Positions 6,305-30,877 of a stretch of 46,522 nt of DNA are shown here, in pieces (position 1 is the first letter of the stretch; the number at the start of each line of letters is the position of its first letter). The notes under the pieces were generated by a model. The model worked only from the letters and a program-made list of their open reading frames with translations. It ran no database searches and had not been told where the DNA came from. This stretch comes from a virus. The stretch covers positions 1-46,522 of IMG/VR virus record IMGVR_UViG_3300048091_000230; one strand, 5' to 3'. Position numbers and translations under genes: made by a program.

Positions 6305-6850
6305 TCAATCAGTCCAAACGATCGCGGACACCGCCGCCGCGTCGGCTGCGGCATTCACCGCGTCTTCGTATTTCTGGCGCTTACCGATCAGGGCGCCGGC
6401 CGCCGCCGAGTAGTTCACAGAATTGGCGATGACGCGACTCGCGAGGTCGGCGACGGCGATGCCGCGCGCGGCGGCCATCGCGGACAGCAGCGGCGTCCAA
6501 GCGGTCTTGTCGGCGGTGTATGCGACGGCTTCCGACTTCTGGTCGAACCAGCTCTGGATTTCATCCAGGGGATAGCCGGCCTTCACGACGCTCATGCGGT
6601 CCGAGAATGCTGCTGACAATTCTGCGAGCTTCACCGCCTTGATCTCGTCCAGCGTCCACAGGGAACGTGGATCGATCGCGACTGGGGCGCCTTCGGTGCT
6701 TGGCATGATGACGTGACCCGCTGCCTGCGCTGCAAGAAGAGCTGCGTGCTGGTCATCGCCTATTTCAATCACATCTGCCGGCAGCCCTTCGCCATAGTCG
6801 ATGTTGTTGGAATAAAAGCCTTTCGTGCTCGGGGAATATCGAATGGTCAT
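6305..6850 (-). CDS. tail fibre assembly-like protein (DUF4376-type C-terminus)
   Basis: A 181-residue protein that ends the tail operon directly after the fibre gene. The N-terminus IRYSPSTKGFY resembles phage tail fibre assembly proteins. The C-terminal half (WTLDEIKAVKLAELSAAF ... YTADKTAWTPLL) resembles DUF4376-type helical domains found on fibre-associated proteins. It probably acts as a fibre chaperone or a minor fibre part. Family resemblance is by eye. Confidence 0.7.
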   Translation of the reverse strand: MTIRYSPSTKGFYSNNIDYGEGLPADVIEIGDDQHAALLAAQAAGHVIMPSTEGAPVAIDPRSLWTLDEIKAVKLAELSAAFSDRMSVVKAGYPLDEIQSWFDQKSEAVAYTADKTAWTPLLSAMAAARGIAVADLASRVIANSVNYSAAAGALIGKRQKYEDAVNAAADAAAVSAIVWTD

Positions 6851-6858
6851 GGCTGTCC

Positions 6859-7389
6859 TTAAAAACCGATTGCGAAGTATCGGGCGACGCCGGTCGAATA
6901 GCTCGACCCGCCCGTGCTACCACCCGTGAGAGAAAACCCTGTCTTCGACAGGTTGCCGCAGCCATACGCGTAGTCCTGATTGCCTGAGTCAGTGGCGACA
7001 GCCTGGAGGCATGCCGTCGGAAACGTAACCGGAAACGTGATCAGGTTTCCGGACGACGTCGAGCTCGCCGAGCCCGTCCCCCACTGAAGAATGAGCCCCC
7101 CAGGCAAGGGCACCCAGTCATTGCCAGTGAATACGTGCCCCGCCCTTCCCGGGCCGTACAGTGCCTGCAGCGCCGTCAGGACTTGGTTGTAGGTGGTCTT
7201 CGACGGAGTAACTCCTCCAGCCGTCAGGATGCTCATGAGCTCTTCCTGGATCGAGTTGAACCAGGACGCGCGCTCGAGCGTGGCGGGCACACCGGTGGTC
7301 GGATTTCCTTCGGTCCAGAAGCCCGGCGTACCCGCCGCCTCCGGCGTTGGCATTTGGGAGGCAGCTGACGGATCGTCGATTCGAAACAT
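6859..7389 (-). CDS. tail fibre/collar protein
   Basis: A 176-residue fibre protein. The N-terminus (RIDDPSAASQMPTPEAAGTPGFWTEG) and the LERASWFNSIQEELM segment are typical of short fibres in Mu-like prophages. The C-terminal ILQWGTG ... FPVTFPTACLQAVATD ... ARYFAIGF is the gp53-like fibre tip fold. The start at 7389 has GAGGAT upstream. It should form the receptor-binding end of the tail. It is short, so the long adhesin role may be partly taken by the proteins at 27.8-30.9 kb. Confidence 0.85.
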   Translation of the reverse strand: MFRIDDPSAASQMPTPEAAGTPGFWTEGNPTTGVPATLERASWFNSIQEELMSILTAGGVTPSKTTYNQVLTALQALYGPGRAGHVFTGNDWVPLPGGLILQWGTGSASSTSSGNLITFPVTFPTACLQAVATDSGNQDYAYGCGNLSKTGFSLTGGSTGGSSYSTGVARYFAIGF

Positions 7390-7399
7390 GGGTGATCCT

Positions 7400-7996
7400 C
7401 TACGAGTAGGTGAAGAACAAAACGGTGTGCGCCGGCGCGATCGCGCGCAGCTCACACTCAAGGACGGCATTGCCCCAGCTGGCCAGCGGCTCGCCGGCGG
7501 CCGCAGTGCCGACGCGCGAGCGCACGACGGTGTTCAGGGCCGAGCTGACGCTCCAAGCATGCGCCCAGGCCGGGCCGCACAGCGGTTGCCCGACGCGCGA
7601 TTGGCCGACGCGCGCCGGCATGTACTGCTTGATGGTGATCGTGTAGCCCAAGTTCTTGGCGAACGCGATCATGTAGGCTGGCGTCTGCCCGCCGACGCCG
7701 GTGAAACGCGCCACCACCTGCCCGCGCCGGCCTTGGATCGTCGGCGATGGCCCGGCGCATGGATCCGGAAGCCCGAGCGTCGCCTCCCACTCCGGCAACA
7801 GCTGGAATGTCGTGGCCGGAAACGCATCGACCACCAGGTCGTTGGCGCGGCCGTTCGAGCGTGCATAGCTTTGCGCCAGGCCCAGGGCCAGCTTCGTTTG
7901 CACAGCGTCCGATTCACGAGGCCAGGCGCGCCCGCGCGGCAGCAGCGCCTGCAGCGCCGCCTGGTAGTCGGCGGCTGAATAAAGCGGTGCGGCCAT
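7400..7996 (-). CDS. baseplate protein, Mu gp48/DUF2313 (YmfQ) family
   Basis: A 198-residue protein with the family opening YSAADYQAALQALLPRGRAW and the later LPEWEATLGLPDPC and RRGQVVARFTGVGGQTPAYM segments. Mu gp48-type proteins link the baseplate wedge to the fibre. The gene follows the gp47 homologue with two bases between. The start at 7996 was chosen over a much longer frame because it begins at the family N-terminus. Confidence 0.9.
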   Translation of the reverse strand: MAAPLYSAADYQAALQALLPRGRAWPRESDAVQTKLALGLAQSYARSNGRANDLVVDAFPATTFQLLPEWEATLGLPDPCAGPSPTIQGRRGQVVARFTGVGGQTPAYMIAFAKNLGYTITIKQYMPARVGQSRVGQPLCGPAWAHAWSVSSALNTVVRSRVGTAAAGEPLASWGNAVLECELRAIAPAHTVLFFTYS

Positions 7997-26838: not shown

Positions 26839-27510
26839 TCACCGCGCCGTCGCCAGCGCCTGGGCCAGCGCTTCCTCGTAGTCGCGCCGCAGGTTCCGCG
26901 AGATCACCTTCATGGCGGTCCCGCCGAACTCCAGGCGCGTGTTGACCGGCAGCGCGTCGCCGAAGCGCAGCAGCAGCTTAAGCCGTGCGCTTGGCCCTTT
27001 GTTCAGCCCGCGCAGGCGCTTGCCGTTCGGGCCCAGCAGCGTGACGCGGCTCGTGTCGGTCACGCGCTGCCAAACGCCATTGACCGGGCCGGCCTTGGTC
27101 TTGACCACGCCGATGAAGATGTCCGGCCGTGCCTTAAGCTTCGCCAGGGTCGCGCGCGGCAGCTGGCCATACGCGTTCAGCTTGATGTCTTTAGGGTTCA
27201 GCAGTGCGCGACCAGGCAGCTTGTGCACGCCCCCGGTCTCGTACGGCTCCAAGTACTTGGCCGCCACCGGCTTCACGAACACCGTCACCGCGGGGTTGGT
27301 CTTCGTCGCACGCTTCACGCCGATCGACTTCTGGGTGAATGGTGTTGGGTGCTTGAACTTCGCGCGGATGTTGCCCTGCTCAGCACGTTCTACTCTTTTG
27401 CCAATCTTGTTCAGCGCCTGGGCAGTGGCGAACGGCACCTGCTGGCGCGCGATACGGCCCAGCTGCGCCGTGAGCTGCCTCAGGTCGGAGCGAATATTGA
27501 TGTCGATCAT
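26839..27510 (-). CDS. putative virion morphogenesis/minor structural protein
   Basis: A 223-residue basic protein with a helical N-terminus (IRSDLRQLTAQLGRIARQQVPFATAQALNKIGKRV) and a beta-rich rest. The layout resembles phage proteins in the HK97 gp10/tail-completion or minor capsid class. It ends the gene cluster located between the late promoter and terS. I do not recognise a specific family. Confidence 0.65.
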   Translation of the reverse strand: MIDINIRSDLRQLTAQLGRIARQQVPFATAQALNKIGKRVERAEQGNIRAKFKHPTPFTQKSIGVKRATKTNPAVTVFVKPVAAKYLEPYETGGVHKLPGRALLNPKDIKLNAYGQLPRATLAKLKARPDIFIGVVKTKAGPVNGVWQRVTDTSRVTLLGPNGKRLRGLNKGPSARLKLLLRFGDALPVNTRLEFGGTAMKVISRNLRRDYEEALAQALATAR

Positions 27511-27512
27511 GG

Positions 27513-27821
27513 TCAGCTCGAAACGTAAAGCAGGCCGAAGCCATCGTCAGGCAGCACCAGCTCGCGGCCTTCGCTGGTCATGGCGGTACAGATCGGAGCG
27601 TACATCAGGCCCGGCACACCGCCGCCGATCAGCTGGCTGACCAGCGCGCCATCGATCGTTTCGGTACCGAGGATCATCGTGGCGGCCGCCGGATCGGCGC
27701 CATCGACAGGCGCGATGGACCAAGGTGCTTGCGAGATGGTCTCGTTCGGCAGCAGTAGCGGCCCGAAGTCGACGGTGAATACATCCTTTTCGCGCGCGCG
27801 CTTCGGAGTGAAATTGCTCAT
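27513..27821 (-). CDS. phage structural protein, unknown (102 aa)
   Basis: A 102-residue protein: KDVFTVDFGPLLLPNETISQAPWSIAPVDGADPAAATMILGTETIDGALVSQLIGGG. The pattern of short strands resembles the fibronectin-like phage-fibre accessory proteins that precede adhesins. It overlaps the upstream adhesin-like gene by four bases (ATGA). Virion role is inferred. Confidence 0.65.
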   Translation of the reverse strand: MSNFTPKRAREKDVFTVDFGPLLLPNETISQAPWSIAPVDGADPAAATMILGTETIDGALVSQLIGGGVPGLMYAPICTAMTSEGRELVLPDDGFGLLYVSS

Positions 27822-29599
27822 AACTGCCTTACTCGCGGCTGGGCGACATAAACACGCGCGCGCACGCGCGCCGCATAGGTACGTTTCGGGTTCGGCATCA
27901 GCGGCGGCAGAACGTCAGTCACAGCCGCAGCAAGGCCAGCGCTTGAGCCCTGGGCCAGGCCAGCAGCCAACACGACCGGGGTGAGCAGGGTTGCCTGGAA
28001 GCCAGCGGTCGTCGATGTGGCGGCGCTTGGCGAGCTGCTTGAATTCGCGCCTGCACTACCGACCACCGTTGGCTGCGTGATTGCTGCAGCCAGACCAGCA
28101 TCGGTGGAATGCCCCTCACCAGCAGCGATCGACGTCGATCCAGCCAGCGCGATGGGCAGTCCCGCCGCCACCACTCCAGCTTTGCCAGCAGCGATCGTTG
28201 TCGGCAGGACCAGCGACGCCGCCAGGCCAGATGCGGCAGCGGCTGCGGGATTCGCTCCAATGCTGGCGCCACCAGAAATATTCGCCGCCAGGCCGGTATT
28301 CGACGCGCCCGCCTCACTTGCGCTGATGCTCGTCGAGCCGGCGATGGCGATCGCCAGGCCTGTTGCGCTGGCCGTTCCTTCGCTGGCGCCGATATTCGTC
28401 GGCAGATAGACAGCTGCACCAGCACCAGCAGCACTTGCCTGGGCCTCGCCGGTGGCGATGCTCGTCGGCAGCGAAACCGACGCCGTGAGCCCGGATGCAG
28501 CCACCCCTGCTTCGCCAGCGCTGATCCCCGACCCGCTGGTGATCCCGGCCGCCAGACCAGCATTCGATGCCCCCGCGCTGGAGGCGGCGATGTTGGTCGG
28601 CGAGGTAATCTGCGCGGCCAGCCCAGCGCTTGCTGCTGCAGCCTGCGTGCCGGAGATTGCCGTCGGCAACGAGATTGCGGCCGAGTTTCCTGCGGCGGCT
28701 ACGGTCCCTGCACTGCTCGCCACAGCAGTCGGCAGACTGATCGAGCTGGCATTGCCCGACGCGGTCTCCGCTGCCACCGAAGCGCCGATCGTGACAGCGC
28801 TACTCGCGCTCGCGTTTGCGATTGCCGCGGCGTAGGGGAAACGCGGGGCCGGGTCCATGATGCGCGAGCGATCACGGTAAAAGCTGTCGATCTCGGCCGG
28901 CGTCAGGCAGGCGTTGAAGAACGTCGCGCCGTAGAGCGCCTGGTCGTACGAAGCGAAACCGTAGGTGCCGCCGCCCAGCATCACCAGCGGAACGGTGTTG
29001 CCGGTCGCCAGCGGCGCGCTCAGCGTGTAGGTCGATGTCTTAAACTGCACGCCCACCGGCGCGCCGGCGTTCGTCATCACGGCGGCGTACGATCGGAAAG
29101 TGATCGTTACATTGCCGTCATAGCTGATCGCGAGGAACACGCGTGCGCCCGTGCCGTCGCCCGTCCAAGGGCTGTACGAGGCGTCGTCGCCGTATGTCGC
29201 GAGCTGGACCGTCCGGTAATTCGAGGCCGCCAGCAGTGTGAACTGAGTATGGCCCTGGCCAGACGAATCGCCAAAGCTGAACAGCGTTTTCCCGCCCGAG
29301 TAGTCGCCCTGGAAAAAATCGACGATGACGGTACGCGGTGCCGAACCGGCCATGCCGAGCTGTGCCGGCAGGATGCCCGTGTTCAGCGATCCCGAACCAC
29401 TACCCTGAAGGAATTTGCCGTGCGGGCCGGGGGCGATGTACGGGCCGCCCGATGGAATAGTCGGCGTTCCAGGGCGCCCGCGCACCACAGATCGAACGTC
29501 GCGGCTGAACGGGAAATGCGCAGTGACCTTGCGGCCGAGTGGAGAGCTTGCCGCTACCTTGGCGCCTTGCAGTAGCGTCCTTGGCGAGCTGCTACCCAT
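27818..29599 (-). CDS. LamG-like adhesin protein with tandem 22-residue repeats
   Basis: A 593-residue protein. Residues about 85-245 form a concanavalin/LamG-like beta sandwich (VIVDFFQGDYSGGKTLFSFG ... ATFFNACLTPAEIDSFYRDR). Residues 270-511 are eleven consecutive 22-residue repeats rich in Ala, Gly, Ser and Thr, most ending in a P-T, S-T or similar pair and carrying a central Gly-Leu-Ala step. The C-terminal 50 residues are basic (RTYAARVRARVYVAQPRVRQL). The pattern suggests a beta-solenoid shaft between a lectin-like head and a virion-anchoring tail. It lies upstream of terS, not with the tail-fibre genes. Role in adsorption is inference. Confidence 0.8.
   Translation of the reverse strand: MGSSSPRTLLQGAKVAASSPLGRKVTAHFPFSRDVRSVVRGRPGTPTIPSGGPYIAPGPHGKFLQGSGSGSLNTGILPAQLGMAGSAPRTVIVDFFQGDYSGGKTLFSFGDSSGQGHTQFTLLAASNYRTVQLATYGDDASYSPWTGDGTGARVFLAISYDGNVTITFRSYAAVMTNAGAPVGVQFKTSTYTLSAPLATGNTVPLVMLGGGTYGFASYDQALYGATFFNACLTPAEIDSFYRDRSRIMDPAPRFPYAAAIANASASSAVTIGASVAAETASGNASSISLPTAVASSAGTVAAAGNSAAISLPTAISGTQAAAASAGLAAQITSPTNIAASSAGASNAGLAAGITSGSGISAGEAGVAASGLTASVSLPTSIATGEAQASAAGAGAAVYLPTNIGASEGTASATGLAIAIAGSTSISASEAGASNTGLAANISGGASIGANPAAAAASGLAASLVLPTTIAAGKAGVVAAGLPIALAGSTSIAAGEGHSTDAGLAAAITQPTVVGSAGANSSSSPSAATSTTAGFQATLLTPVVLAAGLAQGSSAGLAAAVTDVLPPLMPNPKRTYAARVRARVYVAQPRVRQL
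28067..28792 (-). repeat. eleven tandem 66-bp repeats coding 22-residue units
   Basis: The units all have exactly 22 codons with no indel between residues 270 and 511. The shared pattern is Ile/Val at position 2, Ala-Ala/Ser near 3-4, Gly at 13, Leu-Ala at 14-15 or similar, Ile at 18 and Pro-Thr or Ser-Thr at 21-22. DNA copies have diverged, so the repeats are old or under selection at protein level. Confidence 0.85.
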
Positions 29600-29601
29600 G
29601 G

Positions 29602-29988
29602 TTACGGCACCTGGCGCTCGAGGAACACTTCCACGGTGACATTTTGCGACGTGTTACCGAAAGCCTTCGCGGTGAAGGATCCGTATCCACCTGGGATCGG
29701 GATCACTCCCGATGCCGAGCTATTCGCGAGTGCATCACCGCTGACGCGGTCGATCTCGTACAGGCGCTGGTTGGCGCCAGGATTGACAACCGCGTAGAAC
29801 ACGATGACCACCGGCGAACCAGGGGCTGGGCTGCCGTTGTTGATTCGATAAGCGAAGGAATCGGCATAATCAGCAAAGGGCCCGACGACAGCACCTACGC
29901 CGGCGCTTGCTGGCGACGCCTCGGTATAGCCGAACGGCACCGATGTCCCGGCCGCGATGATGGTTGCTTCGGCTGTCGTCATGGTCAT
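29602..29988 (-). CDS. phage structural protein, unknown (128 aa)
   Basis: A 128-residue protein with no Cys and many short strands: PFGYTEASPASAGVGAVVGPFADYADSFAYRINNG, and a C-terminal FTAKAFGNTSQNVTVEVFLERQVP. It resembles a small beta-sandwich virion protein. It ends two bases before the adhesin-like gene and overlaps the upstream gene by four bases. No family recognised. Confidence 0.65.
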   Translation of the reverse strand: MTMTTAEATIIAAGTSVPFGYTEASPASAGVGAVVGPFADYADSFAYRINNGSPAPGSPVVIVFYAVVNPGANQRLYEIDRVSGDALANSSASGVIPIPGGYGSFTAKAFGNTSQNVTVEVFLERQVP

Positions 29989-30416
29989 GCTGATTTCTCG
30001 CTGCCGTCCAGGTTATACATGGCCGCCTCGACCTCCAGGCGCGTGACGATTACCGGGCGCATGGCCATATTCTTGAGCTGAGCAGCTTGCGTTGCAGTCA
30101 AGACCGGCGACAGGCCCGACGATAGCGAGTTGATCGCACTGATCGTCTTTGCCAGCCCGATATCCAGGCCACTGTCCTGCTTCAGGAACGACATGAACAT
30201 GCCGACCAGCGCATTGGTCGTCGAGGCACCGGCCAGCGCCGACACGATGTTGTCGCCGTCGGCGCACTCGACCTCGATTGTGCGCAGCGTGACGAAGCGC
30301 GATTGAATGGCGGTGACGCCCTGGGCATTGAGACCGGCAGCCAGCGCGTCGAGGTTGCGCGCCGCGCGAGCCGCCTGCAGATCGGGGCTGGCGATGATGC
30401 GCTCGCGGATGCCCAT
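29985..30416 (-). CDS. phage protein, unknown (143 aa)
   Basis: A 143-residue protein with an N-terminal helical part (IRERIIASPDLQAARAARNLDALAAGLNAQG) and a central Gly/Ser-poor helical stretch. It lies in a tightly packed cluster of virion-like genes, suggesting a head or tail accessory role. No motif is recognisable. Confidence 0.65.
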   Translation of the reverse strand: MGIRERIIASPDLQAARAARNLDALAAGLNAQGVTAIQSRFVTLRTIEVECADGDNIVSALAGASTTNALVGMFMSFLKQDSGLDIGLAKTISAINSLSSGLSPVLTATQAAQLKNMAMRPVIVTRLEVEAAMYNLDGSEKSA

Positions 30417-30418
30417 GA

Positions 30419-30877
30419 TCAGCTCACCGTTTCAGCAGCAATACCGGCGGCGTTCCAGTTCAGGTTGATCGGGCCGTTCACGTTGCCCACCGGGCCGCCA
30501 AGGTCGACGTAGCCGATCGCGTAATTGCCCGAAACGGTCGCGTCGTACAGGATGCCGTAGAAGCCGTTCGAGAAGCCCGAGGCGTCCTGCGGCACCACCA
30601 CGTTGGCGGCAGCCAGGGTGACGACGGCGCCACTGCGCGACAGGGCCACGCTGCCGAGAGTGATCGGGCCAGCATAACCGGCGCCGAGTGCAACCTGGTT
30701 GGCGGAGAAGTCGGTGGCGCCGCCCGAGCCCCAGCGCGGGTCGTTCGTGCCAATCGCCGGGGCGGTGGCGCCGGTCACGATGCCCAGCTTGAGCGTGTCG
30801 GTCGTCAGGTTGAAGTTGCCGCCAGCTTCGGCTTTGAACTGGAATGCTGCGAAAAGGTGTACGTCACCGCGGGACAT
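30419..30877 (-). CDS. phage structural protein, unknown (152 aa)
   Basis: A 152-residue beta-rich protein: VHLFAAFQFKAEAGGNFNLTTDTLKLGIVTGATAPAIGTNDPRWGSGGATDFSANQV. This resembles the small coat or fibre proteins seen in podoviruses and in lambda-like head-fibre clusters. It opens the adhesin cluster. The start at 30877 lies within the end of the preceding small membrane gene. Confidence 0.7.
   Translation of the reverse strand: MSRGDVHLFAAFQFKAEAGGNFNLTTDTLKLGIVTGATAPAIGTNDPRWGSGGATDFSANQVALGAGYAGPITLGSVALSRSGAVVTLAAANVVVPQDASGFSNGFYGILYDATVSGNYAIGYVDLGGPVGNVNGPINLNWNAAGIAAETVS

What the first reader, a model, noticed from the sequence alone, without database searches (positions are those of the whole stretch)
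28067..28792. Eleven 22-residue repeats of exact length in an adhesin-like phage protein
From residue 270 to 511 the protein is a perfect-period array without any indel, while the DNA copies differ. The pattern (Ile near 2, Gly-Leu-Ala near 13-15, Pro-Thr at the end) suggests a regular beta-solenoid. I know no named family for it. With the LamG-like head it forms a rod-like surface adhesin.
Basis: seen in the sequence. Interest (0 to 1): 0.65.

Follow-up and report, generated by a model that had tools for sequence, protein, structure and literature searches.

The report
Repeat-built shaft of accessory phage fibre
A temperate contractile-tailed phage encodes a protein with eleven 22-residue repeats of identical length, probably the shaft of an extra attachment fibre held by a small adaptor protein encoded next to it; the exact repeat was found nowhere else, but similar repeat shafts beside the same kind of adaptor turn up in many other phages.

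Summary
Residues 270-511 of the 593-aa protein (27818-29599, minus strand) are eleven gap-free 22-residue copies. The period is far above shuffles, and third codon positions are as different as background, so the array is old and held at protein level. It continues as two degenerate copies that do contain insertions. The next gene, overlapping by ATGA, is a PF23148 adaptor (Gp77, 'podophage GP4 fiber-tail adaptor'). In IMG/VR relatives this adaptor sits directly beside, or is fused to, other repeat arrays (periods 14, 20, 22, 24) with exchanged heads (Laminin_G_3, GDSL, others). Unfused members, this one included, share a C-terminal motif PNPxRTYxARxRxRxYVxQ. Cultured Lessievirus phages carry a virion structural protein with about 20-22-residue repeats upstream of their Gp77 protein. 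The likeliest reading is an accessory receptor-binding fibre: N-terminal head, repeat shaft, C-terminal docking peptide, Gp77 adaptor. The phage also has an ordinary baseplate fibre, and cultured relatives lack the module. The beta-solenoid claim is unproven: both AlphaFold2 models were uninformative. The window's own head matches no LamG profile. Virion presence was not tested.

The parts
27818..29599 (-). 593-aa repeat-shaft fibre protein (whole ORF)
   Evidence: no Pfam, PHROG, PDB, cultured-phage or plasmid match
28835..29599 (-). N-terminal head, residues 1-255; LamG-like by inference only (beta-rich with a final LTPAEIDSFY helix)
   Evidence: no Laminin_G match; low-confidence beta strands then a helix; profile match to L003/L008/L038 heads limited to the final 25 residues, probability 3.5
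28067..28792 (-). eleven exact 22-residue repeats, consensus xIxAxxAxAxAAGLAAxIxxPT; copies at 28727-28792, 28661-28726, 28595-28660, 28529-28594, 28463-28528, 28397-28462, 28331-28396, 28265-28330, 28199-28264, 28133-28198, 28067-28132
27977..28066 (-). degenerate copy 12 with an insertion of about 8 aa (residues 512-541)
   Evidence: sequence; weak profile hit
27908..27976 (-). degenerate copy 13 (residues 542-564)
   Evidence: profile hit at residues 545-561, E 1.6e-4
27821..27895 (-). C-terminal putative docking motif PNPKRTYAARVRARVYVAQPRVRQL (residues 569-593)
   Evidence: shared with L003, L008, L038, L034, L042 directly upstream of Gp77
27513..27821 (-). Gp77-family fibre-tail adaptor, 102 aa, start overlaps the array gene's stop (ATGA)
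   Evidence: PF23148 E 2.8e-10, 41 bits over the 27-bit cut-off; GP4 chain 8jou_D E 0.017 by profile
26839..27510 (-). minor tail protein (phrog_1924), conserved neighbour that fixes the locus in relatives
29602..30877 (-). three small genes upstream in the cassette (29602-29988, 29985-30416, 30419-30877; the last matches phrog_644)

Best explanation
The protein is an accessory receptor-binding fibre of a temperate myophage. An N-terminal head (probably LamG/concanavalin-like) is held away from the particle by a shaft of about 13 Ala/Gly/Ser-rich repeats. Each repeat has alternating small and large hydrophobic positions (I2, A4, A7, A9, L14, A16, I18) that look like two or three short beta strands packing against the next copy or against sister chains. 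The arginine-rich C-terminal peptide docks the shaft to the Gp77-type adaptor made from the next, translationally overlapping gene, and the adaptor fixes the fibre to the virion. Shown: the array, its protein-level constraint, the adaptor homology and adjacency, the fusions of other arrays to the adaptor, and head exchange in relatives. Inferred: presence in virions, the beta shaft, docking through the C-terminal motif, and receptor binding.
For: Exact 22-aa period with position-3 codon identity at background. PF23148 adaptor next door overlapping by ATGA. In L002, L004/L005, L006/L007, L037 and L041 a short-period array is fused N-terminally to the Gp77 domain, an indication from gene fusion that array and adaptor work together. 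Unfused relatives L003, L008, L038 have head + array (periods 22, 20, 24) + the same C-terminal motif + Gp77. Heads differ at a constant locus: Laminin_G_3, GDSL lipase, others. In cultured Lessievirus phages the gene just upstream of the Gp77 homologue is phrog_19041 'virion structural protein' with about 20-22-residue repeats. The window has its own baseplate fibre and fibre-assembly gene, so this one is additional. BZS1, phiNP and phiAP1 lack annotated array or adaptor genes at the same place.
Against: No structure: AF2 mean pLDDT 29.9 and 37.5. The window head has no LamG profile hit. Virion presence untested; in JC1 the Gp77 protein (gp55) was detected in purified virions but the upstream homologue gp54 is not in the list (PMC9144972). 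In Lessieviruses the annotated tail fibres lie downstream of Gp77, so the partner of the adaptor there may be another gene. The C-terminal motif does not match the Lessievirus tails significantly.
Confidence: 0.62

Rival explanations
1. The array is a disordered or weakly ordered Ala/Ser/Gly-rich flexible tether between head and adaptor, not a folded rod.
For: Composition 31% Ala, 15% Ser, 14% Gly, 9.5% Thr, one aromatic and 8 charged residues in 242; AF2 confidence very low in the array.
Against: Eleven copies of invariant length with fixed Ile2, Gly13, Leu14 and Ile18, kept while synonymous sites randomised; a tether should tolerate indels and hydrophobic loss. Relatives with different repeat sequences keep a period of about 20-24.
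Confidence: 0.2
2. The array is a single-chain beta-solenoid rod, one 22-residue coil per repeat.
For: Perfect period, alternating hydrophobics with glycine and Pro-Thr at likely turns; the array-only AF2 model places weak strands at positions 14-20 and about 1-3 of several repeats.
Against: AF2 did not fold it confidently even though it tends to over-predict beta-solenoids for repeats (PMC11795689), although that bias was shown for perfect repeats; phage fibre shafts are usually homotrimers (general knowledge).
Confidence: 0.25
3. The shaft is a homotrimeric intertwined beta fibre (triple beta-spiral or beta-prism-like), so that a monomer prediction cannot show it.
For: Phage fibres are typically trimers (general knowledge); the GP4 fibre whose N-terminus resembles the Lessievirus fibre is deposited as 18 chains (8jov) and the Gp77 adaptor as three chains (8jou_D); the monomer predictions failed.
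Against: No sequence match to any solved fibre shaft; the core-facing positions are mostly alanine, small for known triple beta-spirals (inference).
Confidence: 0.35
4. The protein is not in the virion: it is a lysogenic-conversion (moron) surface protein of the host carried in an accessory site.
For: The site between the lysis genes and phrog_1924 holds other cargo in relatives: a sialyltransferase in phiNP and an acyltransferase-like ORF in L006.
Against: The ATGA overlap with a fibre adaptor and the array-adaptor fusions in relatives. No signal peptide is apparent at the N-terminus (read by eye, not run through a predictor).
Confidence: 0.1

Closest known systems
Lessievirus upstream protein phrog_19041 (BcepIL02 gp56, BcepMigl gp57, JC1 gp54; also Pseudomonas phage Itty13)
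   Same: Array of about 20-22-residue repeats in the gene upstream of a Gp77 homologue (immediately so in BcepIL02, Itty13 and JC1, with overlapping genes; one gene removed in BcepMigl), annotated virion structural or virion-associated in BcepIL02 and BcepMigl.
   Different: No detectable sequence match to the window protein; no head domain; podophages; different, more divergent repeat sequence.
PF23148 Gp77, podophage GP4 fiber-tail adaptor
   Same: The window's 27513-27821 product matches above the curated cut-off.
   Different: This is the neighbour, not the array protein; here it sits in a contractile-tailed phage.
Laminin_G_3 / concanavalin-like head + repeat-array proteins of relatives L003 and L008
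   Same: Same locus, architecture, C-terminal motif and adaptor.
   Different: Repeat sequences and, in L008, the period (20) differ; the window head gives no Laminin_G_3 hit.
Mycobacterium phage Wilder gp24 / prophiGD54-2 gp42 and Microcystis phage Mwe-JY26 (ORF upstream of Gp77)
   Same: Repeat arrays of period about 20-22 in structural-region proteins within two genes of a Gp77 homologue.
   Different: Gly-rich heads or separate head ORFs; no significant sequence match to the window array.

Membership tests
Gp77 fibre-tail adaptor module (PF23148) | Neighbouring gene matches PF23148 above the gathering score | tested here: met
   41 bits against 27, E 2.8e-10
Gp77 fibre-tail adaptor module (PF23148) | Array or fibre genetically tied to the adaptor (adjacent or fused) across relatives | tested here: met
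   Adjacent in L003, L008, L038; fused in L002, L004-L007, L037, L041
Gp77 fibre-tail adaptor module (PF23148) | Array protein physically bound to the adaptor in the virion | not testable with these tools
   needs virion proteomics or cryo-EM
LamG / Laminin_G_3 head | Profile match over the head domain | tested here: not met
   No Laminin_G_3 hit for residues 1-255 at E<=10, while L003 (28.2 bits) and L008 (27.1 bits) match
beta-solenoid | Regular coil of short parallel strands, one coil per repeat | tested here: inconclusive
   AF2 mean pLDDT 29.9 and 37.5; fold search not run because such models give meaningless matches
triple beta-spiral / trimeric fibre shaft | Homotrimer with interdigitated strands | not testable with these tools
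   only single chains can be predicted here
phrog_19041 virion structural protein | PHROG profile match | tested here: not met
   No PHROG hit for the window protein; BcepIL02 gp56 matches at 3.5e-158

The most novel reading that the evidence does not exclude
Short-period (14-24 residue) arrays beside or fused to Gp77-type adaptors form an undescribed class of phage fibre shaft, anchored to the particle at the C-terminal end with the receptor-binding head at the N-terminus, in which head and repeat sequence are exchanged freely while a short repeat period and the adaptor are kept.
Probability: 0.3. Interest if true: 0.6.

Novelty: new member of a known kind. Interest (0 to 1): 0.42.

Why it matters
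If right, a short adaptor family marks the place where very different temperate and lytic phages plug in exchangeable fibres, and the repeat arrays are adjustable-length shafts that profile libraries miss because of low complexity and fast divergence. Array and adaptor give a simple handle for finding receptor-binding proteins in metagenomic phages, and an unnamed, probably beta-rich repeat whose fold could be solved.

Tried and rejected
Homology searches with the whole protein in IMG/VR, GTDB genomes, cultured phages, plasmids and PDB found nothing, nor did the head alone or the repeat profile against PDB. A DNA pattern for the repeat motif returned only unrelated ORFs, and a pattern for the C-terminal motif only chance matches. 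Searching GTDB genomes with the Gp77 alignment gave nothing. AF2 with a five-row alignment and on the bare array was uninformative, so no fold search was run. Drawing relatives of the genome is not possible for a virus record. Significant homology of the C-terminal tail to Lessievirus tails was tested and not found. No GP4 record was found under the one accession I tried from memory, and the GP4 tail paper is only cited, not held. Chance or composition was rejected by shuffles; recent DNA duplication was rejected by codon position 3.

Full report
What is there. The 593-aa ORF at 27818-29599 (minus) contains eleven consecutive 22-residue copies at residues 270-511, window 28067-28792, with no gap. 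Lag-22 identity is 0.364 while the best lag in 1000 shuffles never exceeded 0.26. Gly13 is invariant, Ile/Val2 and Ile/Val/Leu18 are always aliphatic, and Leu14, Pro21 and Thr22 dominate. Between copies the third codon positions are at background identity (0.295 against 0.28) while positions 1 and 2 are 0.53 and 0.63. So the array is old, is not a product of recent slippage, and is constrained as protein, including its length. The array is followed by two degraded copies with insertions and a 25-residue C-terminal motif.

Setting. The window is an IMG/VR virus record of a temperate myophage: GpA terminase and lambda-type portal, sheath, capsid, tape measure and baseplate genes, integrase and RusA. 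It has an ordinary baseplate fibre (6859-7470, Gp53-like C-terminus) and a fibre-assembly protein (6305-6850). The array gene therefore is probably not the main tail fibre. It lies upstream of the terminase genes, followed by a 102-aa gene that overlaps it by ATGA and matches PF23148, the podophage GP4 fiber-tail adaptor gp77 (the PDB chain 8jou_D is reached weakly with a profile).

Relatives. The protein itself has no relative detectable by direct search. I therefore walked in from the conserved neighbour 26839-27510, which gave 32 viral loci, and from Gp77, which gave 20. L003, L008 and L038 have head + array + the C-terminal motif PNPxRTYxARxRxRxYVxQxRVRxL + Gp77, with array periods 22, 20 and 24. 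In L002, L004/L005, L006/L007, L037 and L041 the array is fused straight onto the Gp77 domain. The period is statistically clear for L002, L004, L006 and L037; in L041 and L052 it is visible by eye but weak against shuffles. The N-terminal parts at the same locus are exchanged: Laminin_G_3 (L003, L008), a GDSL lipase protein (L002), and unrelated proteins in L004 and L006. Among the 32 loci, Gp77 was found only in the seven closest, L002-L008; some of the others are short contigs that may not reach the place. Cultured relatives BZS1, phiNP and phiAP1 have no annotated adaptor or array gene there, and a tblastn with the window's adaptor finds no cultured phage.

Outside this phage group. A query with the GP4-type adaptor finds 72 cultured records. 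In Lessievirus phages the gene before the adaptor is phrog_19041, a virion structural protein made of about 20-22-residue repeats (in BcepMigl a pectin-lyase-like gene lies between them); Itty13 matches the same PHROG, but its repeat period is weak. Mycobacterium phage Wilder has a period-20 array two genes after its Gp77, prophiGD54-2 a comparable protein by eye, and Microcystis phage Mwe-JY26 a period-21/22 array directly before it, with a lectin-like ORF (by eye) before that. Agrobacterium phage ph08 has no such array beside its adaptor, so the link is frequent, not universal. In JC1 the adaptor gp55 was found in virions by mass spectrometry, while gp54, the array protein, is not in the list (PMC9144972).

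Mechanism. The fusions and the shared C-terminal motif make it likely that the array's C-terminal end meets the adaptor, so that the N-terminal head points outward. Two AF2 jobs gave no usable model. AF2 is reported to over-predict beta-solenoids for perfect repeats (PMC11795689), so its failure here is mild evidence against a simple single-chain solenoid, but it says little about a trimer. I rate the fibre reading 0.62. Within it I lean to a trimeric beta shaft over a monomeric solenoid, without decisive evidence. The three fold rivals (tether, solenoid, trimer) are alternatives to each other inside the fibre reading, not to the fibre reading itself.

Limits. No virion data, no structure, LamG assignment of this head unproven, no exact relatives, and the likeness of C-terminal tails to those of Lessievirus is visual only.

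Noticed in passing
L006:3763-4800 and L067:6802-7332: The interval between the lysis genes and the phrog_1924 gene looks like an accessory hot spot: an acyltransferase-like ORF in L006 (by eye), an annotated alpha-2,3-sialyltransferase in phiNP, and fibre cassettes elsewhere.
   Followed up: partly
L004:5185-5997: A 14-residue, almost perfect repeat (about VLGxVSxDFxGTFD) is fused to a Gp77 domain, next to an ORF that looks like a beta-propeller.
   Followed up: no
L077:1459-3963: Microcystis phage Mwe-JY26 has an 834-aa hypothetical protein with two successive repeat types of about 21-22 residues directly before a Gp77 homologue.
   Followed up: partly
window 28109-29575 (+): A 488-aa ORF runs antisense to the array gene; most likely a G+C-rich frame artefact.
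   Followed up: no
window 30419-30877 (-): A phrog_644-like small protein (unknown function) upstream of the fibre gene resembles, by eye, proteins upstream of the fibre genes in L036 and L038.
   Followed up: no
L072:832-1026: BcepIL02 encodes a CsrA-like regulator just before the capsid gene; in JC1 one CsrA peptide was seen in virions (PMC9144972).
   Followed up: no
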